Positions 12,734 to 63,291 of a stretch of 64,000 nt of DNA are shown piece after piece. Under the pieces are notes generated by a model. That model was not told the DNA's origin and made no database searches. It saw only the letters and a program-made list of their open reading frames with translations. Within the stretch, counting starts at the first letter, position 1, and the number at the start of each line of letters is the position of its first letter. Both the position numbers and the translations under genes were made by a program. Location: NCBI RefSeq assembly GCF_000003815.2, contig NW_023365752.1, positions 1-64,000 of the forward strand. Direction: 5' to 3'. This DNA is from Branchiostoma floridae (lineage: Eukaryota > Chordata > Leptocardii > Amphioxiformes > Branchiostomatidae).

Positions 12734-13889
12734 CACTTTCACTTTATTTATTTAACCAGGCATATACAGCTCAGGTCAATCTAGACCTGTTTTTCAGGCA
12801 ATCCTGGGGAGATACAACACAATAACATTAAATAGCAACACTAAATAATCAAACATAGCTTTAAAAAGTATCATTGCTAGCCACTGGGTGTAATTGGCGC
12901 CTAATTGTCCTAAAATTCACCATGCTACGTGTTTCCTGAGGAAGTTTGTTCCACAGCTGCACGCTGTGATACTGCAGACTGCCGCGAAATGACGTCACAC
13001 TGACAGCTGGCAACTGAAGCATGTGGGGGTCATAGTCCCGTAACCGTGTGGTCGCTGCACGTGTGTTGACCCTGAGGGTCGGGGGTGACATCCATCGGAA
13101 TAATGTGGACATATACGATGGTGCTCTTCCCCGGACTGACTTGAAAACTGTAACAAGAGAGACCGTTTCCAGCCGTTTACTCACAGACTCCAACCCTGCA
13201 GCAGCTAGCAAGGTGTGAACTGGGACATGATCTTGAAGTCTGTATCCTGTGATCAGTCTTGCCGCTCTGTTCAACAGTCTGTCCAGTTGTACGGTTAGTC
13301 CTTTGTTGCACTGAATAAGACTTGGTAGCCACGCGGTGGCGCAGTAGTCAAGGTGAAACAACAACAGAGTTTGGCACATGGTCTGTAGAATCTCTGTTGA
13401 GACAAAACCTTTGGCCCGCCTCATGGCACCAAGACCACCAAGGATTTTCTTCATCACCTTCCCAGCATGTGAAGTCCACAGGACAGATGGATCAAGAGTG
13501 ACCCCCAAGTATGTAAACGATTGAACTTGTTCATAGACGTTTACACCATCTGTTATATTGACAGACAGACCAGTATGTCTTAGTTTTTGTGGGAGACCAA
13601 ATAACATGGATTTGGTTTTGTCCGGGTGCAGTAGCAGCTTGTTTTCTTTCAGCCACTTTGCTACTCTCGTCATGTCACTGGAGATTGTCTCTTCGCACTC
13701 TTTTACTGAAGATGCCGAGTAGTAAAGAATGGTATCATCGGCATACAAGTGGATACTGAATTTCTCTATGACATTAGGTAGGTCATTTACATATATGCAG
13801 AATAACAAGGGGCCCAGGACACTTCCCTGGGGAACCCCGCAGGTGACCAGAGCTTTTTGGGAGTGTTGACCCTGAATCTGCGTGCACTG
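12734..13889 (-). mobile_element. 5'-truncated non-LTR retrotransposon (reverse transcriptase 3' half)
   Basis: A single open frame of over 315 codons on the minus strand encodes the C-terminal half of a LINE reverse transcriptase. It begins near the [12 protein letters not shown] motif (upstream of 13808). The catalytic YADD box follows in [13 protein letters not shown], then a fingerprint ending in [11 protein letters not shown] typical of CR1/L2/jockey-like elements. The minus-strand 3' end shows AAATAAATAAAGTG. The insertion point is exact: satellite reads GAATGAT up to 12733 and resumes GAAA at about 13890, as in the intact unit at 17025. No target duplication is obvious. The frame has no upstream half and no start codon, so it is a dead-on-arrival copy, although the frame itself is intact. 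Confidence 0.9.
12861..13889 (-). pseudogene. Reverse transcriptase fragment of the LINE
   Basis: Open reading frame inside the truncated LINE. Visible motifs in order: [13 protein letters not shown], the finger/palm motif near [18 protein letters not shown], the catalytic aspartates; [17 protein letters not shown]; and the C-terminal thumb region. The endonuclease domain and the N-terminal part of the polymerase are absent because of 5' truncation. The frame ends at a stop near 12861, about 130 bases before the 3' end of the element. Codon use is ordinary, so the insertion may be young. Confidence 0.85.
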
Positions 13890-16800
13890 GAAATCCGCAT
13901 TCCATTCTGTTACTTCCTTGTCGAGATATTCTTGAGTATACGGATTCTATTTCGGCGCAACCTCTAGCTACCTTTTGGAAACACCAGCTGTCACGGTACC
14001 GGGTAGGTATTTAATAACGGAATTTTAGCTTAGGCTTTAAGTTCCGGCCTAGCAAGCTTGGTATGGTTGGAAAGGTCCGTTAGTAAGGAATCGAAAGAGG
14101 AAAACCGCAGTCCAATCCGATACTTCCTTGTCGAGATATTTCTTTAGTATACGGACTCTATTTGGGTGCAACCGCTAGCTACCTCTTGGAAACACCGCCT
14201 AATGCCTGTCACGGTGCCGATGAGCAGTTAATAACGCAATTGTAGCTTAGGCTTTAAGTTCCGGCCTAGCAAGCTTGGTATGGTTGGAAAGGTCCGTTAG
14301 TAAGGAATCGAAAGATGAAAACCGCAGTCCAATCCGATACTTCCTTGTGGAAATATTCTTGAGTATACGGACTCTATTTGGGCGCAACCTCTAGCTACCT
14401 TTTGGAAACACCATCTGTCACGGTACCGGGTAGGGACTTAATAACGCAGTTATAGCTTTGCATCATGATATGGTTGGNNNNNNNNNNNNNNNNNNNNNNN
14501 NNNNNNNNNNNNNNNNNNNNNNNNNNNNNNNNNNNNNNNNNNNNNNNNNNNNNNNNNNNNNNNNNNNNNNNNNNNNNNNNNNNNNNNNNNNNNNNNNNNN
14601 NNNNNNNNNNNNNNNNNNNNNNNNNNNNNNNNNNNNNNNNNNNNNNNNNNNNNNNNNNNNNNNNNNNNNNNNNNNNNNNNNNNNNNNNNNNNNNNNNNNN
14701 NNNNNNNNNNNNNNNNNNNNNNNNNNNNNNNNNNNNNNNNNNNNNNNNNNNNNNNNNNNNNNNNNNNNNNNNNNNNNNNNNNNNNNNNNNNNNNNNNNNN
14801 NNNNNNNNNNNNNNNNNNNNNNNNNNNNNNNNNNNNNNNNNNNNNGCAGTTATAGCTTAGACTTTAAGTTCCGGCCTAGCAAGCTTGGTATGGTTGAAAA
14901 GTCTTTTAGTAAGGAATCGAAAGATGAAAACTGCAGTCAAATCTGACACTTCCTTGTTGAGATATTCTTGAGTATACGGACTCTGTTTGGGCGCAACCGC
15001 TAGCTACCTTTTGGAAACACCGACTGCCACGGTACCGGGTTGGGACTTTATAACGCAATTGTAGTTAAGGCTTTAAGTTCCTGCCTAGCAAGCTTGGTAT
15101 AATTAGAAAGGTCTCTTAGTAAGAAATCGAATGATGAAAACTGCAGTCCAATCCAATACTTCCTTGTTGACATATTCTTGAGTACACGAACTCTATTTGG
15201 TCGCAACCTCTAGCTACCTTTTGGAAACACCATCTGTCACGGTACCGGGTAGGGACTTCAAAACGCAATTGTAGCTTATGCTTAAGTTCCGGCCTAGTAA
15301 GCTTGGTATGGTTGGAAAGGTCTGTTAGTAAGGAATCGAAAGATGAAAACTGCAGTCCAATCTGATACTTCCTTGTTGAGATATTCTTGAGTATACGGAC
15401 TCTATTTAGGCGCAACAACTAGCTACCTTTTGGAAACACCACCTGTCACGGTACCGGGTAGGGACTTTATCACGCAATTGTAGTTTAGGCTTTAAGTTCC
15501 GGCCTAACAAGCTTGGTATGGTTGGAAAGGTCCGTTAGTAAGGAATCGAAAGATGAAAACCGCAGTCCAATCCGATACTTTCTTGTCGAGATATTCTTGA
15601 GTATACGGACTCTATTTGGGCGCAACCTCTAGCTACCTTTTGGAAACACCATCTGTCACGGTACCGAGTAGGGACTTAATAACGCAATTGTAGCTTAGGC
15701 TTAAGTTCCGGCCTAGCAANNNNNNNNNNNNNNNNNNNNNNNNNNNNNNNNNNNNNNNNNNNNNNNNNNNNNNNNNNNNNNNNNNNNNNNNNNNNNNNNN
15801 NNNNNNNNNNNNNNNNNNNNNNNNNNNNNNNNNNNNNNNNNNNNNNNNNNNNNNNNNNNNNNNNNNNNNNNNNNNNNNNNNNNNNNNNNNNNNNNNNNNN
15901 NNNNNNNNNNNNNNNNNNNNNNNNNNNNNNNNNNNNNNNNNNNNNNNNNNNNNNNNNNNNNNNNNNNNNNNNNNNNNNNNNNNNNNNNNNNNNNNNNNNN
16001 NNNNNNNNNNNNNNNNNNNNNNNNNNNNNNNNNNNNNNNNNNNNNNNNNNNNNNNNNNNNNNNNNNNNNNNNNNNNNNNNNNNNNNNNNNNNNNNNNNNN
16101 NNNNNNNNNNNNNNNNNNNNNNNNNNNNNNNNNNNNNNNNNNNNNNNNNNNNNNNNNNNNNNNNNNNNNNNNNNNNNNNNNNNNNNNNNNNNNNNNNNNN
16201 NNNNNNNNNNNNNNNNNNNNNNNNNNNNNNNNNNNNNNNNNNNNNNNNNNNNNNNNNNNNNNNNNNNNNNNNNNNNNNNNNNNNNNNNNNNNNNNNNNNN
16301 NNNNNNNNNNNNNNNNNNNNNNNNNNNNNNNNNNNNNNNNNNNNNNNNNNNTTGGTATGGTTGGAAAGGTCTCATAGTAAGGAATCGAAAGATCAAAACC
16401 GCAGTCCAATCCGATACTTTCTTACCGAGATATTCTTGAGTATACGGACTCTAGTCGGGCGCAACTGCTAGCTACCTCTTGGACACTCCACCTAGCGCCT
16501 GTCACGGTACCGGGTAGGCATTTAATAACGCAATTGTAGCTTAGGCTTTAAGTTCCGGCCTAGCAAGCTTGGTATGGTTGGAAAGGTCCGTTAGTAAGGA
16601 ATCGAAAGATGAAAACCGCAGTCCAATCCGATACTTCCTGGTGGAGATATTCTTGAGTATACGGACTCTATTTGGGCGCAACCTCTAGCTACCTTTTGGA
16701 AACACCACCTGTCACGGTACCGGGTAGGGACTTTATCACGCAATTGTAGTTTAGGCTTTAAGTTCCGGCCTAACAAGCTTGGTATGGTTAGAAAGGTCCC

Positions 16801-24345: not shown

Positions 24346-25737
24346 TCATTTACATTGGTGCTTGGTTCTCATATGCCAGACGAGGCTGCTTCTTTGACTT
24401 GCCTTGTAGTCACACTCTTGACAACTGTAGGGTCTCTCACCGGTGTGACACCTCATGTGTTTTGTAAGATTACCCTTATCAGCTGTCCTATAGCCACATT
24501 CCTCACATTTGTAGGGTTTCACACCAGCGTGGTACTTCATATGTCTCTCAATGTGTGACACACGGTAGGTCTTGTATTCACAAAGTTCACAGCGGTAAGG
24601 TTCCTCGTCACTGTGTTTTTTCATGTGCTTGACAAGCGAACTTTTAAGTGACGCCTGATAATGACATTGGTTGCACTTGAACGGTTTCTCGCCAGTGTGT
24701 GTCCTCACGTGATCGACAAGTCTGGTCCTATCTGATGCCCTGTAACCACATTCGCCACACATGAAAGGCTTTTCTCCTGTTTTGTGACGTTGCCTGTGCT
24801 TGGAGTGTTTCTGTGCTTTCAATGTATTAAATCCACTGATATCAATTCTCGAGTTCTTACAATCTGGAGTCAGTTTACAAGAAGCGGAAGGAGTCTCCTC
24901 AATATTCACTTTGGGACTTTTTTCATGCTCACCATTTATCAAACCAGTCTCTCTGTCATAGATATAACGTTCATTCTGACTCCGGCTGGACGGTAGAGAA
25001 ATTCGATCATCCTCGGACACATGGCATTCCGTCTTTATACATGTATGTCTTTCAGTGTGGTCTGACGTCGGTTCACAAGAGGCAAAGACTGTTTCTTCAC
25101 AGGGTTTATCATCTTCCACAGGCTTCTCTGTGTAAGTATTACTCGTTGAGTTAACTGCATTAAGCACTTGTGTGCTGAAAGTAGGAGTGCCCATGTTAAG
25201 CTCATCATGACTGCCTCTATGTGATTCATCCTCAGTTATCATAGCAACATCTTCTTCTTCTTCAATGCAGGAGTGTTCTACAGTATTCATTTGTACCGGG
25301 GAGCCATGAAAAGAAGGAAGTGTAGCTGTCAGCTGCACCTGGACTGCATTAAGTGCAAGCTCCTTGTTATGCACTTTATTGCTGTTTTCCCTGCTGTTCT
25401 CAATGTCTAGTCCAGAACTTTGCTGTGAGGCGTCAGGAGTCGAAGTCTTTGTTGCCATCGTTTCTGCATACGCCTGTGGAATATTCTTCTGCATAATGAT
25501 TGTCTCCTGTTCTTTTCCTGGCATGCTTACTTCTGCTTTCCTTTTCAATAGAAGGTATTCCTCCAACATCACGTCCCTAAGGATACTGACCAGCCTGTCC
25601 TTGATGCTGTTCTCTTTGTCCAGGTTTTTAATCCTTCTGTTGAGTTCAAACATCAGCTCCTCCATGTTCAGTCTGGGGAGGACTGCTATGGTCACCTCGT
25701 GCGAGAGGCCACAGATGATCTCCTGTTGTCTGGACAT
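24346..25737 (-). CDS. C2H2 zinc-finger protein, copy A
   Basis: Intact 463-codon frame from an ATG to TAA, probably a nuclear DNA-binding protein. The first ~85 residues are hydrophobic-helical (HEVTIAVLPRLNMEELMFEL, then an Asn/Lys/Arg helix) and are not a KRAB, BTB or SCAN domain I recognise. A long acidic, Ser/Thr-rich disordered middle follows. The C-terminus carries five tandem C2H2 fingers from about residue 327 at 28-residue spacing, with TGEKPF-type linkers. Contact residues at helix positions -1, 3 and 6 read D-R-D, L-S-K, R-H-R, D-N-K and Q-S-W. Finger 5 has HX4H instead of HX3H. TCTCCTTCAG lies one base before the ATG, so an untranslated upstream exon is likely. The duplicate lies 4.3 kb away on the same strand. 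The binding target cannot be read from the sequence. Confidence 0.93.
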   Translation of the reverse strand: MSRQQEIICGLSHEVTIAVLPRLNMEELMFELNRRIKNLDKENSIKDRLVSILRDVMLEEYLLLKRKAEVSMPGKEQETIIMQKNIPQAYAETMATKTSTPDASQQSSGLDIENSRENSNKVHNKELALNAVQVQLTATLPSFHGSPVQMNTVEHSCIEEEEDVAMITEDESHRGSHDELNMGTPTFSTQVLNAVNSTSNTYTEKPVEDDKPCEETVFASCEPTSDHTERHTCIKTECHVSEDDRISLPSSRSQNERYIYDRETGLINGEHEKSPKVNIEETPSASCKLTPDCKNSRIDISGFNTLKAQKHSKHRQRHKTGEKPFMCGECGYRASDRTRLVDHVRTHTGEKPFKCNQCHYQASLKSSLVKHMKKHSDEEPYRCELCEYKTYRVSHIERHMKYHAGVKPYKCEECGYRTADKGNLTKHMRCHTGERPYSCQECDYKASQRSSLVWHMRTKHQCK

Positions 25738-26296
25738 GCTGAAGGAGATTTATGATCAATAAATATGTGTTATTAAATGTACAGCATGATGATAAAGGGC
25801 ATAGAACTCAAATAACTTGTCCCGATGGACAATACTTTTCTTCTGCTAAATGATTCTAATTTGACGTTTACATGTGCATGATATACATAATGCTGTTTCA
25901 TTATAAATAATAATCTTTATTGCAAATTATAAATACGTTGTACCTCTACTGATCTATATTATATTGTGATTATATATCTAATCAAAATAAGCCCTTTTAC
26001 AGAGATCAGAACATAGTGCGGTGACAGGAATATGTCAAAGGTAAAGTCCATGTAAAAGGAAACAGTCTCGCCCACACGGGGTTTGTTTTCTTTACCTACA
26101 TGACATATTACGGTAACAGGTCGACTCGCCCCATGACCAACTCGCCCCAACTATTTACTACTAGTACTTCTCGGTTTTATTCAGATTTTGTACAAATACA
26201 TCCTACTTCTATTAGTAAATATTACTTAGAGTTGGAAATTAGAGTTCCAACTCCATATTACCTAGAATTCCTGTCGCCGCAGGTGCGTTCTGATCT

Positions 26297-28648: not shown

Positions 28649-30046
28649 TCATTTACATTGGTGCTTGGTTCTCATATGCCAGACGAGGCTGCTTCTTTGA
28701 CTTGCCTTGTAGTCACACTCTTGACAACTGTAGGGTCTCTCACCGGTGTGACACCTCATGTGTTTTGTAAGATTACCCTTATCAGCTGTCCTATAGCCAC
28801 ATTCCTCACATTTGTAGGGTTTCACACCAGCGTGGTACTTCATATGTCTCTCAATGTGTGCCCCACGGTAGGTCTTGTATTCACAAAGTTCACAGCGGTA
28901 AGGTTCCTCGTCACTGTGTTTTTTCATATGCTTGACGAGCGAACTTTTAAGTGACGCCTGATAATGACATTGGTTGCACTTGAACGGTTTCTCGCCAGTG
29001 TGTGTCCTAATGTGATCGACAAGTCTGGTCCTATCTGATGCCCTATAACCACATTCACCACACATAAAAGGCTTTTCTCCTGTTTTGTGACGTTGCCTGT
29101 GCTTGGAGTGTTTCTGTGCATTCAATGTATTAAATCCACCGATATCGATTCTCGAGTTCTTACAAGTCCAGTGTGGAGTCAGTTTACAACAAGTAGAAGG
29201 AGTCTCCTCAATATTCACTTTGGGACTTTTCTCATGCTCACCATTTATCAAACCAGTCTCTCTGTCATCAGTATAACGTTCATTTTGATTCTGGCTGGAC
29301 GGTAGAGAAATTCGATCATCCTCGGACACATGGCATTCCGTTTTTATACATGCATGTCTTTCAGTGTTGTCTGGAGTCGTTTCACAAGCGGCAAAGGCTG
29401 TTTCCTCACAGGGTTTATCATCTTCCACAGGCTTCTCTGTGAAAGTATTACTCCTTGAGTTAACTGCATTAAGCACTTGTGTGCTGAAAGTAGGAGTGCC
29501 CATGTTCAGCTCATCATGACTGCTTCTATGTGCTTCATCCTCAGTTGCCATAGCAACATCTTCTTCTTCTTCAATGCAGGAGTGTTCTACAGTATTCATT
29601 TGTGCCGGGGAGCCATGAAAAGAAGGAAGTGTAGCTGTCAGCTGCACCTGGACTGCATTAAGTGCCAGCTCCTTGTCATGCACTTTATTGCTGTTTTCCC
29701 TGCTGTTCTCAATGTCTAGTCCGGAACTTTGCAGTGAGGCGCCAGGAGTTGAAGTCTCTGTTGACATCGTTTCTGCATATGCCCTTGGAATATTCTTTTG
29801 CATAATGATTGTCTCCTGTTCTTTTCCTGGAATGCTTACTTCTGCTTTCCTTTTCAACTGAAGGTATTCCTCCGACATCACATCCCTAAGGATACTGACC
29901 AGCCTGTCTTTGATGCTGTCCTCTTTGTCCAGGTTTTGAATCCTTCTGTTGAGTTCAAACATCAGCTCCTCCATGTTCAGTCTGGGGAGGACTGCTATGG
30001 TCACCTCGTGCGAGAGGCCACAGATGATCTCCTGTTGTCTGGACAT
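28649..30046 (-). CDS. C2H2 zinc-finger protein, copy B
   Basis: Intact 465-codon paralogue of the gene at 24346-25737. The two-residue difference in length comes from a small insertion (TPHWTCKNSR against TPDCKNSR) before the fingers. All five C2H2 fingers keep their zinc ligands and the same -1, 3 and 6 helix residues. Finger 3 differs only at helix positions 1 and 2 (GA in place of VS). Most substitutions fall in the acidic disordered middle. The same CTTCAG-C-ATG start context is present, so the upstream untranslated exon, if real, was copied too. Both copies being open suggests both are under constraint or that the duplication is recent. Confidence 0.93.
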   Translation of the reverse strand: MSRQQEIICGLSHEVTIAVLPRLNMEELMFELNRRIQNLDKEDSIKDRLVSILRDVMSEEYLQLKRKAEVSIPGKEQETIIMQKNIPRAYAETMSTETSTPGASLQSSGLDIENSRENSNKVHDKELALNAVQVQLTATLPSFHGSPAQMNTVEHSCIEEEEDVAMATEDEAHRSSHDELNMGTPTFSTQVLNAVNSRSNTFTEKPVEDDKPCEETAFAACETTPDNTERHACIKTECHVSEDDRISLPSSQNQNERYTDDRETGLINGEHEKSPKVNIEETPSTCCKLTPHWTCKNSRIDIGGFNTLNAQKHSKHRQRHKTGEKPFMCGECGYRASDRTRLVDHIRTHTGEKPFKCNQCHYQASLKSSLVKHMKKHSDEEPYRCELCEYKTYRGAHIERHMKYHAGVKPYKCEECGYRTADKGNLTKHMRCHTGERPYSCQECDYKASQRSSLVWHMRTKHQCK

Positions 30047-30194
30047 GCTGAAGGAGATTTATGATCAATAAATATGTGTTATTAAATGTACAGCATGATG
30101 ATAAAGGGCACAGAACTCAAATAACTTGTCCCGATGGACAATACTTTTCTTCTGCTAAATGATTCTAATTTGACGTTTACATATGCATGATATA

Positions 30195-34779: not shown

Positions 34780-37440
34780 TCACAGGGAACACACTTACTG
34801 TGAAGTACCTTACTTTGGGTCGCACAAAGGTTACACCCTTACCTTATCTGTAAGTTACCTTACATGGTTCCTCTTCTACTGAAACACACTTATTGTAAGG
34901 TACCTTACTTCGGGTCGGACCAAAGGAAACACCTATCTTATCTGTAATGTACCTTACATGGTTCCTCTTCTTCTGGAACACACTTACTGTAAGGTACCTT
35001 ATTTTGGGTCGGACCAAAGGAAACACACCTACCTTATCTGTAATGTACCTTACATGGTTCCTCTTCTTCTGGAACACACTTACTGTAAGGTACCTTACTT
35101 CGGGTTGGACCAAAGGAAACACCCCTACCGTATCTGTAATGTACCTTACATGGTTCCTCTTCTTCTGGAACACACTTACTGTAAGGTACCTTACTTTAGG
35201 TCGGACCAAAGGAAACACACCTACCGTATCTGTAATGTACCTTACATGGTTCCTCTTCTTCTGGAACACACTTACTGTAAGGTACCTTACTTTGGGTCGG
35301 ACCAAAGGAAACACACCTACCTTACTTGTAAGGTACCTTACATGGTTCCTCTTCTACTGGAACACACTTACTGTAAGGTACCTTACTTTGGGTCGGACCA
35401 AAGGAAACACACCTACCTAATCTGTAATGTACCTTACATTGTTCCTCTTCTTCTGGAACACACTTACTGTAAGGTACCTTACTTTGGGTCGGACCAAAGG
35501 AAACACACCTACATTATCTGTAATGTACCTTACATGGTTCCTCTTCTTCTGGAATACACTTACTGTAAGGTACATTACTCTGGGTTGGACCAAAGGAAAC
35601 ACACCTACCTTATCTGTAAGATACCTTACATGGTCCCTCNNNNNNNNNNNNNNNNNNNNNNNNNNNNNNNNNNNNNNNNNNNNNNNNNNNNNNNNNNNNN
35701 NNNNNNNNNNNNNNNNNNNNNNNNNNNNNNNNNNNNNNNNNNNNNNNNNNNNNNNNNNNNNNNNNNNNNNNNNNNNNNNNNNNNNNNNNNNNNCACCTAC
35801 CTTATTTGTAATGTACCTTACATGGTTCCTCTTCTTCTGGAACACACTTACTGTAAGGTACCTTACTTTGGGTCGGACCAAAGGAAACACACCTACCTTA
35901 TCTGTAATGTACCTTACATGGTTCCTCTTCTTCTGGAACACACTTACTGTAAGGTACCTTACTCTGGGTTGGACCAAAGGAAACACACCTACCGTATCTG
36001 TAATGTACCTTACATGGTTCCTCTTCTTCTGGAACACACTTACTGTAAGGTACCTTACTTTGGGCCGGACCAAAGGAAACACACCTACCTTATCTGTAAT
36101 GTACCTTACATGGTTCCTCTTCTTTTGGAACACACTTACTGTAAGGTACCTTACTTTGGGTCGGACCAAAGGAAACACACCTACCTTATCTGTAATGTAC
36201 CTTACATGGTTCCTCTTCTTCTGGAACACACTTACTGTAAGGTACCTTACTTTGGGTCGGACCAAAGGAAACACACCTACCTTATCTGTAATGTACCTTA
36301 CATGGTTCCTCTTCTTCTGGAACACACTTACTGTAAGGTACCTTACTTTGGGTCGGACCAAGGGAAACACACCTACATTATCTGTAATGTACCTTACATG
36401 GTTCCTCATCTTCTGGAACACACTTACTGTAAGGTACATTACTCTGGGTTGGACCAAAGGAAACACACCTACCGTATCTGTAATGTACCTTACATGGTTC
36501 CTCTTCTTCTGGAACACACTTACTGTAAGGTACCTTACTTCGGGTCGGACCAAAGGAAACACACCTACCTTATCTGTAAGGTACCTTACATGGTTCCTCT
36601 TCTTCTGGAACACACTTACTGTAAGGTACCTTACTTCGGGTCGGGCCAAAGGAAACACAACTGCCTTATTTGTAATGTACCTTACATGGTTCCTCTTCTT
36701 CTGGAACACACTTACTGTAAGGTACCTTACTTCGGGTCGGACCAAAGGAAACACACCTACCTTATGTGTAATGTACCTTACATGGTTCCTCTTCTACTGG
36801 AACACACTTACTGTAAGGNNNNNNNNNNNNNNNNNNNNNNNNNNNNNNNNNNNNNNNNNNNNNNNNNNNNNNNNNNNNNNNNNNNNNNNNNNNNNNNNNN
36901 NNNNNNNNNNNNNNNNNNCTACCTTATGTGTAATGTACCTTACATGGTTCCTCTTCTTCTGGAACACACTTACTGTAAGGTACCTTACTTTGGGTCGGAC
37001 CATAGGAAACACACCTACCTTATGTGTAATGTACCTTACATGGTTCCTCTTCTTCTGGAACACACTTACTGTAAGGTACCTTACTTTGGGTCGGACCAAA
37101 GGAAACACACCTACCGTATCTGTAATGTACCTTACATGGTTCCTCTTCTTCTGGAACACACTTACTGTAAGGTACCTTACTTTGGGTCGGACCATAGGAA
37201 ACACACCTACCTTATTTGTAATGTACCTTACATGGTTCCTCTTCTTCTGGAACACACTTACTGTAAGGTACCTTACTTCGGGTCGGACCAAAGGAAACAC
37301 ACCTACCTTATCTGTAATGTACCTTACATGGTTCCTCTTCTACTGAAACACACTTACTGTAAGGTACCTTACTCGCGGTCGGACCAAAGGAAACACACCT
37401 ACCTTATCTATTATGTACCTTACCTTTGCTGGATTGCGTA
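34780..37440 (+). repeat. 96-bp minisatellite, about 27 units
   Basis: Head-to-tail 96-bp units; TAATGTACC recurs at 35041, 35137 and 35233. Each unit carries the perfect 14-bp palindrome GTAAGGTACCTTAC, a near-palindromic TGTAATGTACCTTACA, CTTCTTCTGGAACACAC and GGTCGGACCAAAGG. Gaps lie at 35640-35793 and 36819-36918. Because 96 is 32 codons, several frames on both strands stay open for hundreds of codons (up to 827 on the plus strand). With four such frames open at once this is arithmetic, not coding. Confidence 0.96.
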
Positions 37441-54952: not shown

Positions 54953-56610
54953 ATGAATCGGGACAGAAAATCAATGAGAAAACAGCCAGGGAAAAAGGCC
55001 TTGAGTCGAAAGGAAAAGCATGCTGAAGAAGATTGCTGGACAGAGGATGACCTGAGGGCCCGCATGAAGAAAACAACCTCTTTGAAGGAACTTGACTTGT
55101 CCGATAGTTGTTTTGAACAAGTACCTCCGGAAGTATTTTGTATTAAGGACATTGAAATCCTGGACTTGTCAGACAACCCCCTTGGCTCCATACCGGTGAA
55201 CATCGCCAGCCTTTCCAATCTGAAAGAGATGAGAGCAGCCGGCTGCGGTATCAGAGAAGTTAGCGGGAACATTTCAAGATGCACCTACCTGAACAAAGTA
55301 GACCTGTCTCGGAATCCTTGCATCACATCACTTCCTGTAACAATGAAGCAAAATCGGTACTTGAAACACATTGGTTTGAGCAGTTGCGAACTGAAATCAG
55401 TTCCCGAGAACCTAACTCTCCTGGCCACGATCGAGACACTTGACCTGTCAAACAATGAACTGACAACCCTTCCTCCTGACATTTCAGGGCTGGAGCGACT
55501 TAAAGTGCTTATCCTTAGCGATAATGCTTTTGAAGTCATCCCAGAATCTGTCGAGTCTCTAAGCCATCTCCGCTGCTTAGAAATGAAACGGAACAAGATG
55601 AACAACAGCCGAGGTGACCAGAAGCTTCACGTTCCCGCACACTTGAAGACCCTGGATATGGAGGGCAACCATTCCTTAAAGCTGCTGCCAGAAGAGTTTG
55701 AAAATCTTCAGCATTTGGAGGAGCTGAACATCAGCTACTGTGGCATCAAAACACTTCCGGACTCTATCGGGAATGTGACCTCAATAAAACGAATTCATCT
55801 AGCTGGCAATAAGCTGCGGTCGCTTCCGGCAAACTTCGGAAACCTCCTCAATCTGGAGACCCTCGATCTGGAGGGGAACCGCCGACTATCCAGTTTGCCG
55901 CTCTCACTGTTTCATCTGAGGAAAAACCTCAGAGATAAACAGACAGGGACAAACTTTGGTCTTATCCTGGACAACTGCCCAGCTCTAGCGCTACCCGAGT
56001 CGGAAATCGCCCAAGGGAACGTTGTCTCTGTCCTTTTAGAGCTCCTGTCCGAGGATATCATAGCGAAGAGCATAGTCGCTGTCACTGCAGAAGTTGTTGA
56101 AGACACAATCATGGAGGGCTTGGCAGACAACATGGTCGCCGTGACGGAAGCATGTGTTTGGGACAATTTTTTGACGGATGCCGCAAACGTTGCAATCTCA
56201 GACAAAGAATGCTCGGGGAACATCTTTCAAAGCATGTTGGAAGAGGTCATATCAGATTTTGTGAAGGAAATAGTCACTGAAACTGTACAAGAAGAAAGGG
56301 TCATGATTATCATGACAGAAGAGTTGTTGAAAGATTTGACTGGGTCAATGTCAGAGGAAGTGGCTACGAATGCTCTGTTGGTAGATGCGGAGGCGCGGAA
56401 AGTGATGAATGAACTTTTAGAGGAAGTACGCCTTGCAACGGAAGAAGAGCTTGCACAAGACACAGTCAATGTAGATGAAATCACAAGGGAAATGATGGAG
56501 GGAATATTGGAGGAAGTTAAGACGGCAACGGCACTTTCAATCGCCCTGGAAGTGGATGAAGAAGTCCGCCTGGGCCGAACAGTTCCAGACGAGTACGACA
56601 CACAGTTTAG
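54953..56610 (+). CDS. PIDD-like gene, exon 1: LRR and helical region
   Basis: 552 codons plus two bases, ending TTTAG|GTGAGT. Twelve leucine-rich repeats of ~23 residues have the LxxLDLSxNxLxxLPxxI pattern of the intracellular SHOC2/PIDD class. Repeat 8 is longer (KMNNSRGDQKLHVPAHL). From about residue 350, repeated acidic amphipathic motifs such as MLEEVISDFVKEIVTETVQ and LLEEVRLATEEELAQDTV predict a helical bundle or coiled segment that PIDD, as I recall it, lacks. Confidence 0.9.
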
Positions 56611-59600
56611 GTGAGTTTTCAAACGTATAGCCCTTTGTTAAGCTTCACAGTAAGAAAGACATGGCAATAAGGCATTGATATGTTTGTTGTATTTTAACAT
56701 TACAAGACACTTTCCGCGGAGCAAACCTTTAACTGGATTCACCATTTCTTTGTCAATAGCCATGAGATTTCAGCTGCCGTAAAAGAGATGCAGTACGTGG
56801 ACCTTCCGGCAGGTGGCAGGTTGAGCGTCCCCCCAGGAGCTACTGATGAAGATATTTCCGTCATCACAGCAGTGCTGAACCCACACGGCTACGACATGAA
56901 AATCAGGCTACAGGACGACGAGCTGCTAGTCAGCGACATACTAGAGATGAGACCGGCCGGGATGGAATTCTCCAAACCTGTACAGCTGAAGATTCAGCAC
57001 TCCTTACCCAAGTTCTACTGTGAAAAGGAGTTCATCGTCAAGACGACTGAAAATCTAGGATACTCATGGAGGACTCTGGATACAGTCAGCCAACAAGAGC
57101 AAGTAAGTGATGGTTGTGCCTGCTTGCATGTGGTTTATACAGGGGTGCCTAAGCATTTGCACGAACCTTATGAGATTCCTCCGAATATTATGTGATATGC
57201 ACGAATCACTATGTGATACACACAAACCTTATGTGATTTGCACGAACCTTATGTGAAATCTGCCGATTACTACCCGGGTCACGTGACAGGCGGAGCGGGA
57301 TTTTTAAGATGGCGGCTTCGATCTTTAGCGACGAAAAATACGATGTGACGCGCAGAAATGAAGAAAACGAGTATCTCACATGTTTTTGAATACGTCTTCT
57401 CAATAGTATATGTCCATCATTCAATACTTTGAAATAAAGAAATCACGGGTAGAAATGCTAAAATACACGCTTTCTCCCAACGTAGCGGCGGCGCCGGTTT
57501 GCATAAGGTTCGTGCAAATCACATAAGGTTGAGCAAATCACATAGTGATTCGAGTGATTTTCATAAGGTTCGTGCATAGTGATTCGTGTGTATCACTTAA
57601 GATTCGTACTGATCTCATAAGGTTCGTGCAAATACTTAGGCACCCCTGTTATAGAACAATAGAATTGCCAAGGATGTATGTATCGCCTCATGCCTTCTTT
57701 CATATAGAATCATTATCATATGCATTTCAACTTCAATATTGTTGCATTGTTTGGATTCAACTTATTCGTAAGTGTATGGGATTTAGGGTAAGCGTGTGCA
57801 CCTTAATTTCAAAAGGGCCGCATATGTTTGTTGTGCACTTTCCAGGGTCAGTGGTTCGTCACTGTGTATGTCGACCATTTCTCGGAGTTTGTGGTCGTTG
57901 CGAGACCACGAGAACACTACCAGAGAGTTGAGCGAGGGCAACTATCAACCTTAAGGTCAACACAACAGACAGGCGTCGAGATGTCGTTTCCTAAGGACAG
58001 TGTTCCATACAACACAGACATATCATTTAAGGTACGGGTATTTCTGTACTGCATGCAACATTGTTGTAAAGAGATATCATAAAGATTGCTATATAGTATC
58101 TCGTATCATATCTGTTAACTGTATCTTTTCAACATGTCTTGTGACCTGCACTTAGCCCGGTGTGGAAAAAAATGTGCAATAAAGGTCTTCATTCATTCAT
58201 TCATTCATTGTGACGAAGGTTCTCCCCGTGGATGCCGACACCCTGACGTGCGCTGGTACGGGTGAAGATGGCATCAGCGGTATCGACAGTATGAGTCACA
58301 TCGTCAAGTTCTGCCGTGGTAGCAATCTGCTCCTCAGCAGCCCTGCCACCATAGTGTTGCCGCTGTCACCAGGGGACGGGGACAGCAGAGTTCGCGTGCT
58401 GAGCTGCGATTGGAGAGGTCGGTGGGAAGACGTCACTAGCGCTGTTGACGACATCGTCCTGCAGGGGTCAAAGGTGGCTTTTACAACCGACCGGCTGAAA
58501 CACGGGTGAGTTGTGTTTTCATCCTGTTACATACTCAAAAGCTGAGAGAACGCGTACTACTTTCTTTTCATCAGGAATGCACAACCTTAAGCCTTAGTTC
58601 TCATCAGGCTCATAAATTGTAATGTAGTATTGATTTCCTAAATCCCTACCAGAAACTTTGTAGCACTCGGCCGAATAGTTGGCTAGATAGTTTAGAATAT
58701 ACCAGAAGTCGCGATCGGCTCATCTTTTGGTATTACTCTTTTTCGATAGACGAAAACAGGATTCACTCAACATAAGGTATCCATAAAAAGAAATGAAATC
58801 AACTTCTTCTAGTGCTTCATATATGTCTGTAGACACCTAAAACTGTAAAAAAAGACTTAGCATCGGCTTGGGAAAGTGCCATGTAAATGTTACAATGCAA
58901 CGGCCTTTGGAAATATGTGACACAATCATAGAAAGAGTCACATTCAATTGCTTTCCTCCTTTTATTATTAAAATGCTCCCACAAATCTCAAACTATATAA
59001 GCAAAAATTTTAGATATATTAAGACAAATGTATAAATGGACCCCGATTCGGAAAAGTCACCCTACCACGAGGGTAATAACAAATCAATACCTTTTTACAG
59101 GTTCACTGTTCTTTGTTGTGACAACATTCAAGAATGTGCGGGGATGGTCAACACGGTGATCAAGAACATCCGGGCCAGACTCGTAAGAATCGTTATCTTT
59201 AAGAAGTGGAATGAACCCCGAGAGGAGGGAGTGATGACCGCCCGGATAGAGTGCCTTCTTAACGAGATAGTTGAAGACCGCATCGTCAACACTGAACACC
59301 AAGGATTCGAACGGCAGGTAAGAGGAGAGATGAAAAGGGGCGAGTCCGAGAACAAGCGAAGCTTTGAAAATAACGTCAATATCTGCCAAAGTTTAACATA
59401 CCATCTCATTTAGATCAGCATTATGTATAATAGATAAGGGAAATAACAGCTTCCCGTGTTATCAAGCAGTTTCTATATTTAGCTAATATTTGGCGACAGC
59501 TGACTGACACAAACAACTGAAGCATTCCAATCCAGATTTCAGCTACAAGTGTCCATCTTGTTTCTTCAGCCGGGTACACCCACCCCTCCCATCAAAATGA

Positions 59601-62600
59601 TGGAAGGAGAAGAAATTTGCGTCATATTCGAAGGCAACATCCGTCCCGTAGAAAACAGCAATGGAGTCGACTATACCTTTTACTGCGAGAGGCCGCGAGT
59701 GTTGGAGCTTGACACACAGCTGGTGGACAAGGACAAAGGTGCAACTTCCAGGGTTGAGCTGTATCCAGGGCGATTGGAAAATCTAGGAAAGGCAAGAAGA
59801 AGGAGAATTCGAGGTCCAACTATTCAAAAGAAGCCACCTCCTCCACCACCACCGAAGAAAGAGGTACCGCCACCGGTACCACAACCGCCCCCGATAGTTG
59901 CACCTCCACCCCCGCGGCCAGCTCCACCTCCTGCACCTCCGCGGCCAGCTCCAGCCCCGCAGCCAGCACCACCTCCGCGACCCAAACCACTGCTGACTGC
60001 CGAAATAACGCCTCCCACAGTAAGTAAAATCATACACATTTCAAAATGTAAGGTTCTGATGGCTGATTCGGGACCGCCTCCAAGCTGCCTTTATTGTAAA
60101 GTCTAAGTCGTTATACCCCTGCCACATTTGGCGAAAATCGATCGGACGACGATTCTGTGCGCGGCAATCGCCCGAGCCTCGCTTATAATAATAAATTTAT
60201 TGCAAAACAATTGTACAAAGTACAAAGTATGGCTTATATGTGACAGGGACAGTTTTTAGGTGAAAAATACCCGCAACCCTCTGTCGATCTTATATATGGT
60301 CGATCTTCTATCGATACGCCCGAAGATCGTGGATAATGTGACAGGGTTATTAGGACATTTTAAGGGATAGCTAAACACACAGAGCATTGTAAACAAAACA
60401 ATAGAATCATTTTTGTTCTTTCACATCTTTTTCTTTGACTTTAGAATTGAGTTTAACATTTAATCATGTGAGTTTGCTTTTCCCGATATTCGTTGTCTTT
60501 TTTTGGCGTTTTACGCCATTTATTTTCTCATTTAGAAGCTGTTTTGTACTATTGACAGAACGGTCGAAACTTGACGAAGATTGATGAGCGCGCGGATTTT
60601 ATCCATATACTTAAACCAACATTACCTAGGGGAGCTGATGTGGTAAAATTACAATAAGGTAATAAAGACGATAATTGCATTGGATTTCAGATGGTGTCAC
60701 CGACATGCTACACTAAAACCCTTCAGAGAGAACATCGTTTGGTACGGTTAAAAATGAAATTATGATACATATTGTATTGTTTCTATCCCCAAAGGCAACC
60801 GTTTGTGACTACTGGTTGGCGTGCAGGCGGTTCAAGAACACCTTAGAAATCGGTGGTGAGTATATGTGCCATTACGGTTATGTTAAGCTTATCACTTATT
60901 CTGCAATTCAACTATATATGGCAAAGTCATTGTCTGCTTATCTATGATAAAATCTTTATTGACACGATAAAAGTACAGCGACTTTCATAAGGTCTATAAC
61001 AACTACTTACAGTGCAACTAAACAGACATACACATGTATGGATATCTATAGATACATGTATGAATAAGTCAACATATTGGGTCTAGCATGTCATTTACAC
61101 TTAGTTCTTAGTGTCTATTAGTTCTACGGTATAAGAATGGATATATTTTCCTACTTGTACACAGTGAGGATTATCTCCTCTCAGAATGTAGTTGGATTTA
61201 TCTTTCGATCAGAGAGCAGGAAATTCTTTACAGCAAGCGGAAATAATTTGTGAACAGCTCTTTACGTTTATCACATTACAATTTATTCCACCCGTTCAAC
61301 GCTTTTCAAACTCGACTAATTCTCTTCAAGTCATGGTGACAGATAGGGTTTGCACTGTGACAGCGATTAGTATTAGCGAATACCTCTCGTGAATCGTTAT
61401 ATTAGGATGAGAAATTCTTACGCCTCAAACATTTAAAGTGTGGAACACTTTTTTCCAGACAACTACTTCTGTTCCTCACAGGACAAGTGTTTTTGTGAGA
61501 AGTGTCACGTAGGCAGGGGCGATCCAGATTCTAGGTCCCGAGGAAAACCAGAGACGAAGTACGGGAAGCCCGTGGGGTGGAGTAGGTTCGGTCTCAGGTG
61601 CGTTTCATATATCATATTACATTGTATTGTATTGTATTGTATTGTATTGTGTTGTGTTGTATTGTATTGTATTGTATTGTATTGTATTGTATTGTATTGT
61701 GTTGTGTTGTATTGTATTGTATTATATTGCATTGTATTGTATTGCATTTCATTGTATTGTGCTGTATTGTATTGTATTGCATTGCATTGTATTGTGTTGT
61801 TTTTTAAATTTTATTCTATTGTATTGTATTAAGTCATGTAGGGCCACCCCAATTTTAGCTGTTGTTTCCCGACCCTATTTTTTCCGATTTGAATAAAAAG
61901 AAAAACTTTTCAAATTGATGGACTCACCTCGTGTTGACAAAATTTCACTGCCTCTCTTTTCTCAAATTAACTATGGGCCTCAAATTCCAGTCCGTGCCGA
62001 TTTTGTACGGTACATTTATCATTTTTCTTTAAACTTTGAACTTTGCTACCAGGGACCCCATAAATGTTGAAATGTTATTATTTCTGTTGTGTAAATTGAG
62101 TAAGCCCCCCGATTCCTACCTTTGCAAAAGTTTTTTATCGACCAACCCACCCAATTTTTTTCTGAAAGAATCCTAGAAACAACAAATAAAATTGGTGTGG
62201 CCTAAAGAGACTCGTATTAAGATGTATTCTAACAGGGCTTAGAATTTGTAACTTATGTGGGAAGCACCTCCGTATTCAACAGAAGCACCTAAAGCAACCT
62301 TATACATTGTAATAAGTTACCTTGGCGTAGTGTGAAGATTTTAAAAGCTTAAAGATATAGATACAAATGCCTATATTTGTACCAATTATAATGTAAATTT
62401 CACACACCATACAGTGTCAATCCAGCGTTCATAGACGAGCAGTTGAAAGTGTTCACAGACTGGCATCGCGCGTACCACGGGACCGGTTCGGGTGCGGTGA
62501 AACAAATCCTGCAGACCAGCTCACAGCTGCTCATGCCATGTAAGATGCTCATATTTCTCTTCTCGCCCTTAGTCTCACTCTATCTCTTTAATCTATATAT

Positions 62601-63291
62601 TTATCTTATGCTACAGTTTTAAACCATATATACGTAGACAAAATTAAGCGCTTACAAACAAGCTTTCGATTCTCTGATCCTTATCAAGTTGAATAACCCA
62701 AAGCCTAAGTCACACATCCAGACCGTAAATGTGACGTCAGGAAAGGGTCAAAGGTGCTCATATATCTATTTGTTTGTCTGCCTCTTTTACTATATGACCA
62801 TCTGTATATATACTAGTAAATGTGTGTCTGTCTATCTGATACATCTATCTCTAGCTGTCTATTCATCTGTCTATTTATCTATGTCCATTGACTTTCTCCC
62901 TATATACTACTGTATACATCTATCGACCTATCTATATATCAGTTATCTGTCTGTTTATTTATCTGTCTGTCCATTCACTTATGTGTCTGTGTAATACTTT
63001 AAGTATCTATCCATATATCACTTGTGTATGCTTCTGCTGGAATACTCTAAACAACCGCAGTGTGAGGATATACAATCTTATATCTTTCTTTGCTTGTAAA
63101 CTCGTTGATCTGCATGTATCTTATGCCGACATTCATGTGTCTTATCGTTCATTTCATTCCATTTTAGATGACGTGACCCTGGGAGGCCAACAGCTTGGTC
63201 CCGGGAAAGGGAAAGGTTTTGATTCAAAACAGATATTTGTGTCCCCGAGCATCAAATACGCCGGCCAGGATCGGTATGCGGAACCGTCAAG
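54953..63291 (+). CDS. PIDD-like LRR-ZU5-ZU5-UPA protein with a Cys/His and ART-like C-terminus (partial, 10 exons)
   Basis: Exons 54953-56610, 56760-57102, 57846-58031, 58219-58505, 59101-59317, 59570-60019, 60795-60855, 61459-61597, 62415-62539 and 63168-63291 join in continuous phase with GT..AG introns, giving 1,196 codons and running off the window. Order: twelve LRRs (~43-345), an acidic helical segment (~350-545), ZU5 (553-~680), second ZU5 (~705-820), UPA (~825-985), proline-rich linker (~990-1045), Cys/His cluster (1051-1084), and a domain with YHGT (1134-1137) and SPSIKYA (1181-1187). The first 985 residues match PIDD, the p53-induced scaffold of caspase-2 and NF-kB complexes. HFS at 678-680 matches the PIDD self-cleavage motif; the second site reads HGFT. 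No death domain precedes the C-terminal modules. The ATG at 54953 (ACAAAGATGA) is chosen because the longer frame opens with TTG inside an intron-like TTTATTTCAG acceptor (54908). Confidence 0.88.
56760..57102 (+). CDS. PIDD-like gene, exon 2: first ZU5 domain
   Basis: Completes a split Ser codon and adds 114 codons between TTTGTCAATAG and CAA|GTAAGT. GGRLSVPPGATDEDISVITA opens the domain and ILEMRPAGMEFSKPVQLKI is the usual ZU5 signature. Reading beyond 57102 only adds intron. Confidence 0.9.
57140..57648. mobile_element. 509-bp MITE with long terminal inverted repeats
   Basis: In intron 2 of the PIDD-like gene. The ends CAGGGGTGCCTAAG and CTTAGGCACCCCTG lead into nearly perfect inverted arms (over 35 bp), with subterminal copies of GCACGAACCTTATGTGAT repeated several times per arm. 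TTATA is duplicated at 57135-57139 and 57649-57653. No coding capacity; superfamily uncertain (hAT-like ends, but the target duplication seems shorter than 8 bp). Confidence 0.9.
57846..58031 (+). CDS. PIDD-like gene, exon 3: HFS motif and start of second ZU5
   Basis: 62 codons, phase 0 at both ends (CACTTTCCAG; AAG|GTACGG). The strand VTVYVDHFSEFVVVARPRE places His-Phe-Ser at 57876-57884, the position where PIDD cuts itself between Phe and Ser. VEMSFPKDSVPYNTDISFK starts the next ZU5. Confidence 0.9.
58130..58210 (+). mobile_element. LINE 3' tail with (TCAT)n
   Basis: Plus-strand GTGCAATAAAGGTCTTCATTCATT tail in intron 3, similar to the 3' end of the LINE at 49345 (GTGCAATAAAGG). The tail stops nine bases before exon 4. 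Confidence 0.7.
58219..58505 (+). CDS. PIDD-like gene, exon 4: second ZU5
   Basis: 95 codons plus two bases, ending CACGG|GTGAGT. Begins VLPVDADTL and contains SSPATIVLPLSPGDGDSRVR. The acceptor GACGAAG lies only nine bases after a (TCAT)n retroelement tail that supplies the pyrimidine tract. Confidence 0.88.
59101..59317 (+). CDS. PIDD-like gene, exon 5: UPA domain, first part
   Basis: Acceptor CCTTTTTACAG, donor CAG|GTAAGA. Joins as KHG-FTVLCC where the second HFS of PIDD would lie, then reads IKNIRARLVRIVIFKKWNEP and IECLLNEIVEDRIVNTE. Confidence 0.88.
59570..60019 (+). CDS. PIDD-like gene, exon 6: UPA end and proline-rich linker
   Basis: 150 codons, phase 0 at both ends (TTTCTTCAG; ACA|GTAAGT). 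MMEGEEICVIFEGNI and YTFYCERPRVLELDTQLVDK through SRVELYPG close the UPA domain. A basic KARRRRIRG and about 55 residues of PPPPPPPKK / PPRPAPAPQP follow, a likely SH3 or profilin ligand. Confidence 0.88.
60117..60348. mobile_element. MITE in intron 6 with CCCTG(C/T)CACATT ends
   Basis: The left end CCCTGCCACATT and the right end AATGTGACAGGG are inverted repeats with one mismatch; TTAT lies just outside both. A retroelement tail (minus-strand GCAATAAATTTATTATTAT) is nested at about 60182-60230. Confidence 0.65.
60349..60794. other. Intron 6, no further feature
   Basis: AT-rich intron sequence without recognised repeats. Confidence 0.5.
60795..60855 (+). CDS. PIDD-like gene, exon 7: first half of Cys/His cluster
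   Basis: 61 bases between CTATCCCCAAAG and GGTG|GTGAGT. Reads ATVCDYWLACRRFKNTLEIG; the other two frames contain stops. Confidence 0.8.
60856..61458. other. Intron 7, retroelement tail only
   Basis: Near 60950 the minus strand reads GTGTCAATAAAGATTTTATC, a probable retroelement tail. No exon is needed or seen between exons 7 and 8. Confidence 0.5.
61459..61597 (+). CDS. PIDD-like gene, exon 8: second half of Cys/His cluster
   Basis: Acceptor CTTTTTTCCAG (AG at 61457-61458), donor CTCAG|GTGCGT. With this acceptor the frame reads DNYFCSSQDKCFCEKCH and GKPVGWSRFGL. The nearer TTCCTCACAG acceptor would put a stop in frame, so it is rejected. Confidence 0.82.
61619..61835 (+). repeat. (ATTGT)n microsatellite
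   Basis: About 40 pentamers of ATTGT with GTTGT, GCATT and ATTTC variants in intron 8. A related run begins at about 63970 at the right edge. Confidence 0.97.
62415..62539 (+). CDS. PIDD-like gene, exon 9: YHGT segment
   Basis: Acceptor CACCATACAG, donor CAT|GTAAGA. Encodes VNPAFIDEQLKVFTDWHRAY-HGT and AVKQILQTSSQLLMP, compatible with the first strand and helix of an ADP-ribosyltransferase fold. Confidence 0.85.
62760..63010 (+). repeat. Degenerate TCTA/TCTG microsatellite
   Basis: Interrupted TCTATCTGTCTAT-type sequence in intron 9. The open frames here are repeat artefacts. Confidence 0.85.
63168..63291 (+). CDS. PIDD-like gene, exon 10: SPSIKYA segment
   Basis: Acceptor TTCCATTTTAG, donor TCAAG|GTACAT. 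Encodes YDVTLGGQQLGPGKGKGFDS then KQIFVSPSIKYAGQDRYAEP. Ends two bases into a codon, so at least one more exon lies beyond 64000. Confidence 0.85.

What the first reader, a model, noticed from the sequence alone, without database searches (positions are those of the whole stretch)
54953..63291. PIDD-like protein whose death domain is replaced by a Cys/His cluster and an ART-like domain
Ten exons in continuous phase give LRR, helical region, ZU5, ZU5, UPA, proline-rich linker, Cys/His cluster and a YHGT/SPSIKYA domain. Seen directly: the motifs and phases. Known: PIDD is LRR-ZU5-ZU5-UPA-death domain and acts as a self-cleaving scaffold for caspase-2 or NF-kB complexes. Inferred: this gene couples the same autoproteolytic scaffold to a different output, possibly ADP-ribosylation or ubiquitin-related signalling in innate or stress responses. 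I know of no described protein with this domain order.
Basis: partly seen in the sequence, partly recalled or inferred. Interest (0 to 1): 0.93.

Follow-up and report, generated by a model that had tools for sequence, protein, structure and literature searches.

The report
PIDD-like scaffold fused to ADP-ribosyltransferase
This gene joins the self-cutting scaffold known from the cell-death protein PIDD to a predicted ADP-ribose-attaching enzyme related to the tail of NEURL4, where PIDD has a death domain; if it works as predicted, it is a new way to wire a stress or immune sensor to an enzyme.

Summary
Order: LRR, helical region, ZU5, ZU5, UPA, proline-rich linker, Cys/His cluster, ART-like domain. 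The tail is the C-terminal Cys/His + ART module of NEURL4: the genome's NEURL4-like gene has homologous exons, with agreeing intron phases where tested apart from one tie. It is not a misassembly: paralogue B on C13 models as the same 11 exons; A on C13 has them but an inserted palindromic element interrupts exon 6; C on C19 has the ZU5-to-ART part, no LRR exon found. dN/dS is 0.16-0.31 on both sides of the joint. ZU5-1 keeps the PIDD self-cleavage motif HFS; the second site is not conserved. No death domain was found. Most likely mechanism (inferred): one self-cut after ZU5-1 leaves a sensor half restraining a UPA-ART half that ADP-ribosylates nearby proteins when freed. There are no RNA or activity data. 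Eight literature searches listed no paper describing this order. New variant built from known modules.

The parts
54953..56610 (+). Exon 1: start codon, LRRs (about aa 40-340) and helical region (about aa 345-552)
   Evidence: Splice model; Pfam LRR families; start and LRRs conserved in A and B; helical region folded alone is helical but of low confidence, mean pLDDT 43
56760..57102 (+). Exon 2: most of ZU5-1
   Evidence: Pfam ZU5 E 2.4e-11, aa 571-649
57846..58031 (+). Exon 3: end of ZU5-1 and start of ZU5-2; codons for H678 F679 S680 (HFS) begin at 57876
   Evidence: HFS present in main, B, C and a C12 death-domain locus (4 of 4 rows) and in A
58219..58505 (+). Exon 4: ZU5-2; the second HF(S/T) position reads RLK
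59101..59317 (+). Exon 5: UPA, first part
   Evidence: Similarity to ankyrin UPA region
59570..60019 (+). Exon 6: end of UPA and proline-rich linker ending TAEITPPT
   Evidence: same linker end in B
60795..60855 (+). Exon 7: first part of Cys/His region (C1051, C1057)
   Evidence: counterpart exon in A, B, C, D, F
61459..61597 (+). Exon 8: Cys/His cluster (C1078, C1080, C1083, H1084)
   Evidence: The four residues are invariant in 7 of 7 aligned tails
62415..62539 (+). Exon 9: ART motif 1, HGT (H1135)
   Evidence: HGT invariant in 7 of 7 tails
63168..63291 (+). Exon 10: ART motif 2, QIFVSPS (F1179). The gene continues in exon 11 outside the window (contig 64151-64370), with ART motif 3, ELE (E1248), and the stop
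57139..57649 (.). Palindromic (MITE-like) element in intron 2; a relative interrupts exon 6 of paralogue A
   Evidence: Inverted arms of 75 nt, 88% complementary; match to paralogue A

Best explanation
One 11-exon gene encodes a 1,269-aa protein: LRR, helical region, ZU5, ZU5, UPA, proline-rich linker, NEURL4-type Cys/His module and ART domain. Shown by sequence: exons, domain order, paralogues, purifying selection on both sides of the joint, HFS after ZU5-1, a non-conserved second site, H-F-E at the three ART motif positions, and kinship of the tail with the genome's NEURL4-like gene. Inferred: ZU5-1 cuts itself between F679 and S680, as PIDD and the FIIND proteins do; the LRR-ZU5-1 half stays bound to the ZU5-2-UPA-ART half and restrains it; a signal sensed by the front half, or destruction of that half, frees the UPA-ART half, which clusters through UPA and ADP-ribosylates nearby proteins in a stress or immune response. 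With one site, the two-step PIDD switch would become a single output. The confidence is for the gene, its order and the NEURL4-type tail together with this mechanism as the best guess; for the mechanism alone I would say about 0.35.
For: Splice model and stop. Paralogue B with the same 11 exons, 1,337 aa, no internal stop. dN/dS main vs A 0.233 / 0.309 / 0.157 and main vs B 0.238 / 0.233 / 0.179 for LRR / exons 2-5 / exons 7-11; main vs C 0.225 (exons 2-4) and 0.212 (exons 8-11). NEURL4-like gene: 15 Neuralized matches on C14:21.138-21.168 Mb, minus strand, with homologous tail exons just downstream. HFS in 4 of 4 rows. PIDD HF/S, Ser446 and Ser588, and FIIND SF/S need the serine (PMC3210808, passages). 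NEURL4 as a diverged ART with motifs HGS/LLS/ELE (PMC7955679, passages), described in reviews as acting in mitochondria (PMC9149570 and PMC10789625, passages).
Against: No RNA, protein or activity data. The tail has no Pfam, NCBIfam, PADLOC or PDB match that would confirm an ART fold, so the ART assignment rests on NEURL4. Position 2 is F, not the PARP Y. Human NEURL4's activity is listed as 'not determined' in PMC7955679's table. Paralogue A is interrupted in exon 6, and three loci of the scaffold clade (C19:3.878, C19:3.889, C13:22.2 Mb) have no ART match close by, so the tail is not universal. A Thr (GFT) stands three residues beyond the lost second site, and Thr can be a nucleophile in such reactions (PMC3210808).
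Confidence: 0.6

Rival explanations
1. Two neighbouring genes: a PIDD-like gene ending at or after exon 6 and a separate NEURL4-type ART gene in exons 7-11.
For: No RNA evidence. Three scaffold loci lack an ART match close by (C19:3.878, C19:3.889, C13:22.2 Mb), and E and F on C19 have ART exons without a UPA match in the stretch read upstream.
Against: Exons 6 and 7 are in phase here and in B; the same order, strand and close spacing recur in B and C and, with an insertion, in A. No death domain in four ORFs of intron 6 and two further ORFs (not exhaustive).
Confidence: 0.08
2. Same gene, but the tail is a dead ART or a binding module: no enzyme activity, a scaffold or ADP-ribose/protein reader.
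For: Some NEURL4-related and PARP-related ARTs are inactive or untested (PMC7955679 table passage); motif 2 is F rather than Y.
Against: H and E of the triad are kept in all 7 aligned tails; the tail has the lowest dN/dS of the three parts compared in A and in B; C has Y at motif 2.
Confidence: 0.3
3. Misassembly joining two unrelated genes on a small unplaced contig.
For: The window is most of a 69.5 kb contig, and runs of unknown bases (X on translation) occur elsewhere in the window.
Against: B on C13 has the same order independently, A and C much of it. DNA similarity to B is in the exons plus intron 1 and about 200 bp upstream; the longer introns do not align, so these are old duplicates, not copies of one assembly error.
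Confidence: 0.02

Closest known systems
PIDD1 (LRR-ZU5-ZU5-UPA-death domain)
   Same: LRR front, tandem ZU5, UPA, HFS after ZU5-1
   Different: No death domain found; second cleavage motif not conserved; added helical region, proline-rich linker and NEURL4-type tail
NLRP1 / CARD8 (FIIND = ZU5-UPA, then CARD)
   Same: Single predicted cleavage in a ZU5-UPA scaffold with the output domain at the C-terminus (PMC3210808, passages)
   Different: Output would be an enzyme-like domain, not a CARD; tandem ZU5
NEURL4 (Neuralized repeats + C-terminal Cys/His + ART)
   Same: Homologous Cys/His + ART exons; intron phases agree at exons 9 and 10, tie at the exon 8 acceptor
   Different: No Neuralized repeats; scaffold of PIDD type in front
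Ankyrins and ankyrin-like ZU5-ZU5-UPA-death domain proteins
   Same: Best solved-structure relatives of the ZU5-ZU5-UPA part; C12:2.92 Mb locus of this genome
   Different: LRRs instead of ankyrin repeats; no death domain found; HFS present, absent in the ankyrin sequences shown
TRADD-N proteins fused to UPA-ZU5 or FIIND in marine animals (PMC8195603, passages)
   Same: ZU5-UPA reused with new partners; autoproteolysis predicted
   Different: The passages read do not mention a NEURL4-type ART partner; no TRADD-N here in the Pfam scan

Membership tests
PIDD | LRR domain in front | tested here: met
   Pfam LRR_14 E 2.8e-26, LRR_8 E 2.7e-25
PIDD | Two ZU5 domains and a UPA | tested here: met
   ZU5-1 by Pfam; ZU5-2 and UPA only by similarity to ankyrins
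PIDD | HF/S motif after ZU5-1 | tested here: met
   H678-F679-S680
PIDD | HF/S motif after ZU5-2 | tested here: not met
   RLK, RLR, QLS in main, B, C against HFT in the C12 locus (the C12 row was joined by eye near this place)
PIDD | C-terminal death domain | tested here: not met
   No Death match at E up to 1 in the 1,269-aa model
PIDD | Autoproteolysis and caspase-2 / NF-kB complex formation | not testable with these tools
   Needs protein experiments
NEURL4-type ART module | Homology to the Cys/His + ART tail of a gene with Neuralized repeats | tested here: met
   C14 gene; tail identity 46-54% to NEURL4-like among the six other tails, 47% for this gene
NEURL4-type ART module | ART motifs H / hydrophobic or Y / E | tested here: met
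   HGT, FVS, ELE at H1135, F1179, E1248; human NEURL4 HGS, LLS, ELE (PMC7955679)
NEURL4-type ART module | ART fold | tested here: inconclusive
   No profile or PDB-sequence match; spliced tail not eligible for structure prediction
NEURL4 | Neuralized homology repeats | tested here: not met
   0 of 35 Neuralized matches listed lie on C194
PARP / ART enzymes | NAD+-dependent ADP-ribosylation | not testable with these tools
   Needs protein experiments

The most novel reading that the evidence does not exclude
A gene family in which a PIDD/NLRP1-style self-cleaving LRR sensor releases an ADP-ribosyltransferase instead of recruiting a caspase: an enzyme-output version of the PIDDosome. A neighbouring gene with a tail of the same ART clade is followed by macro, RING and Deltex C-terminal exons, so writer, reader and ubiquitin ligase would evolve together in one cluster.
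Probability: 0.35. Interest if true: 0.8.

Novelty: new variant of a known kind. Interest (0 to 1): 0.6.

Why it matters
PIDD, NLRP1 and CARD8 use a self-cleaving ZU5-UPA scaffold to present death-fold adaptors. A relative whose output is a predicted enzyme would show the scaffold to be a general release device and would give NEURL4-type ARTs, whose activity and targets are poorly known, a sensor and a switch. Both key predictions (a cut at F679/S680, activity that needs E1248) can be tested on short recombinant fragments.

Tried and rejected
Rejected: misassembly; an allele of a C13 copy (dS 0.33-0.85 between main and A or B, far above allelic difference); RING or another Pfam zinc finger for the Cys/His cluster (no match); Neuralized repeats or a death domain in this gene.

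Led nowhere: fold of the helical region (mean pLDDT 43); relatives of the tail in bacterial and archaeal genomes (33 pattern matches, none confirmed); profile or family searches of the tail in PDB, NCBIfam, Pfam and PADLOC; Pfam on three ORFs upstream of ZU5 in paralogue C (one weak match below cut-off); the C-terminus of the distant LRR-ZU5 locus at C13:11.457 Mb (a UPA-like ORF by eye, no death domain recognised by eye in the 2.6 kb read); three papers not held; the Gig2 paper (PMC3617106, passages), which does not bear on this. The genome-wide search with the helical region was sent four times and never answered.
Full report
What is there. Ten exons at the stated coordinates splice in continuous phase with GT/AG borders. 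The contig (C194, 69,503 bases) runs 5.5 kb past the window, and an eleventh exon there, 64151-64370, completes a 1,269-aa protein.

Front half. LRRs and the first ZU5 are over Pfam's cut-offs. The second ZU5 and the UPA are seen only by similarity to ankyrin structures. The helical region gave no useful model. All seven have a ZU5 match close by on the same strand. The next one, C13:11.457 Mb, also has a ZU5 match (34%) and a UPA-like ORF by eye; its C-terminus is unresolved, so I cannot say whether this genome has an LRR-type PIDD with a death domain.

Self-cleavage. PIDD cuts itself after each ZU5 at HF/S, with Ser446 and Ser588 (PMC3210808, passages). Here HFS is at aa 678-680. It is kept in main, B, C and a death-domain type locus on C12 (4 of 4 rows) and in A. 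At the second place the C12 locus has HFT, while main, B and C have RLK, RLR and QLS. Two cautions: the C12 row was joined by eye close to this place, and a GFT stands three residues further on in main, B and C. I predict a single cut.

Back half. The Cys/His and YHGT/SPSIKYA region matches nothing of substance in Pfam, NCBIfam, PADLOC or PDB sequences. In the genome 38 exon matches were listed. One set lies on C14 at 21.13 Mb, minus strand, just downstream of 15 Neuralized-repeat matches on the same strand at 21.138-21.168 Mb: a NEURL4-like gene. With phase left free, its exons 9 and 10 fit best with our intron phases; for exon 8 two acceptors tie, one of them with our phase (exons 7 and 11 were not tested this way). 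In the two other genes tested, C13:9.37 Mb and C15, exons 9 and 10 agree, but the end of exon 8 fits best with another phase. NEURL4's domain is a diverged ART with motifs HGS/LLS/ELE, undetected by standard Pfam and with activity listed as not determined (PMC7955679, passages); it is judged 'PARP-like' by structure comparison (PMC10450202, passages) and is reported to act in mitochondria (reviews PMC9149570 and PMC10789625, passages). Ours has HGT/FVS/ELE. The primary paper on NEURL4 activity was not held.

One gene, not two. Paralogue B (C13:6.915-6.924 Mb) models as the same 11 exons, 1,337 aa, no internal stop. A (C13:6.09 Mb) has counterparts of the exons, but exon 6 is interrupted by an element related to the palindromic one in intron 2 of this gene, with a stop just inside it; exon-like sequence resumes after it. 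C (C19:3.826 Mb) has the end of the helical region and ZU5 to ART, but no LRR match in about 2.8 kb read upstream. D on C19 has UPA and ART exons within 1 kb of each other near 3.78 Mb, with ZU5 and LRR exons 26 kb upstream. Against universality, C19:3.878 and C19:3.889 Mb have no ART match within 30 kb downstream on the same strand, and C13:22.2 Mb has none in the 3.4 kb read beyond its last UPA match, although its linker ends in a similar TAEITPP stretch. dN/dS is 0.16-0.31 in all eight comparisons, on both sides of the joint (helical region and exon 6 left out; C compared for exons 2-4 and 8-11 only). In a tree of 10 tails, main, A, B, C, D, E and F are split from NEURL4-like, C15 and C13:9.37 Mb with support 100/99 (rooted at midpoint for drawing; partial tails of C5 and C18 left out). 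E and F are not known to be linked to ZU5.

Death-domain relatives in the same genome. Comparing the lists by hand, 9 of 41 ZU5 matches have a death-domain match within 10 kb downstream on the same strand; the death-domain search scored 150 of 588 candidates, so this is a lower bound. None of the 8 ZU5 matches of this clade has one in that capped list. The one such locus I read, C12:2.92 Mb, has a clear death domain (E 3.2e-14) and upstream ORFs that look like ankyrin repeats by eye.

A ubiquitin hint. In the C19 cluster, gene E's ART exon is followed within about 1.5 kb by exons matching macro (E 1.1e-10 and 3e-15), RING (E 2e-7) and Deltex C-terminal domain (E 8e-20). A macro-RING-DTC gene lies at C13:6.906-6.908 Mb, about 7 kb upstream of B, and another macro and DTC pair at C19:3.849-3.851 Mb. 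No DTC or macro match is listed on C194. Whether E's exons form one transcript is unknown. That human PARP9 and DTX3L work as a pair is recalled.

Mechanism. A single self-cut after ZU5-1 and release or clustering of a UPA-ART half is the best-supported guess. The cut, the restraint, the sensing and the enzyme activity are all inferred from relatives. ZU5 domains as processing autopeptidases are described in bacterial polymorphic toxins, there mostly at the N-terminus (PMC3482391, passages), and UPA-ZU5 fused to new partners is described in animals (PMC8195603, passages).

Literature. Eight searches listed no paper whose title, shown abstract or passages read describe this order. The library holds open-licence papers only, and three papers I asked for, two of them works on NAD-using and ADP-ribosyltransferase families, were not held, so an earlier mention is possible.

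Noticed in passing
L026/L017 (C19:3.8315-3.8348 Mb, + strand): A NEURL4-type ART followed at once by macro, RING and Deltex C-terminal exons: a possible single-chain counterpart of the PARP9/DTX3L pair (pair recalled).
   Followed up: partly
L077 (C13:6905501-6908100): A macro-RING-DTC gene about 7 kb upstream of paralogue B; a macro and DTC pair also lies inside the C19 cluster.
   Followed up: partly
window 57139-57649; paralogue A exon 6 (C13:6.097 Mb): A palindromic, MITE-like element sits in intron 2 here, and a relative interrupts coding exon 6 of paralogue A.
   Followed up: partly
window 55970-56608 and paralogues A, B: The helical region differs in length between paralogues: exon 1 is 1,658 bp here, 1,841 bp in B and 2,363 bp in A, apparently by repeat units.
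   Followed up: no
window 24349-25749 and 28652-30058, - strand: Two similar C2H2 zinc-finger ORFs (467 and 469 aa) in tandem.
   Followed up: no
window 12864-13946, - strand: Reverse-transcriptase ORF, Pfam RVT_1 E 4.5e-19.
   Followed up: no
window 34847-37438: Tandem repeat of short open units, readable in several frames on both strands.
   Followed up: no
L037 (C13:9.369-9.372 Mb): Another NEURL4-type ART gene whose upstream ORFs look by eye like armadillo-type repeats.
   Followed up: no
L074, upstream of ZU5 in paralogue C (C19:3.827-3.829 Mb): Non-LRR ORFs of unknown kind where the LRR exon would be expected; no Pfam match over a cut-off.
   Followed up: partly
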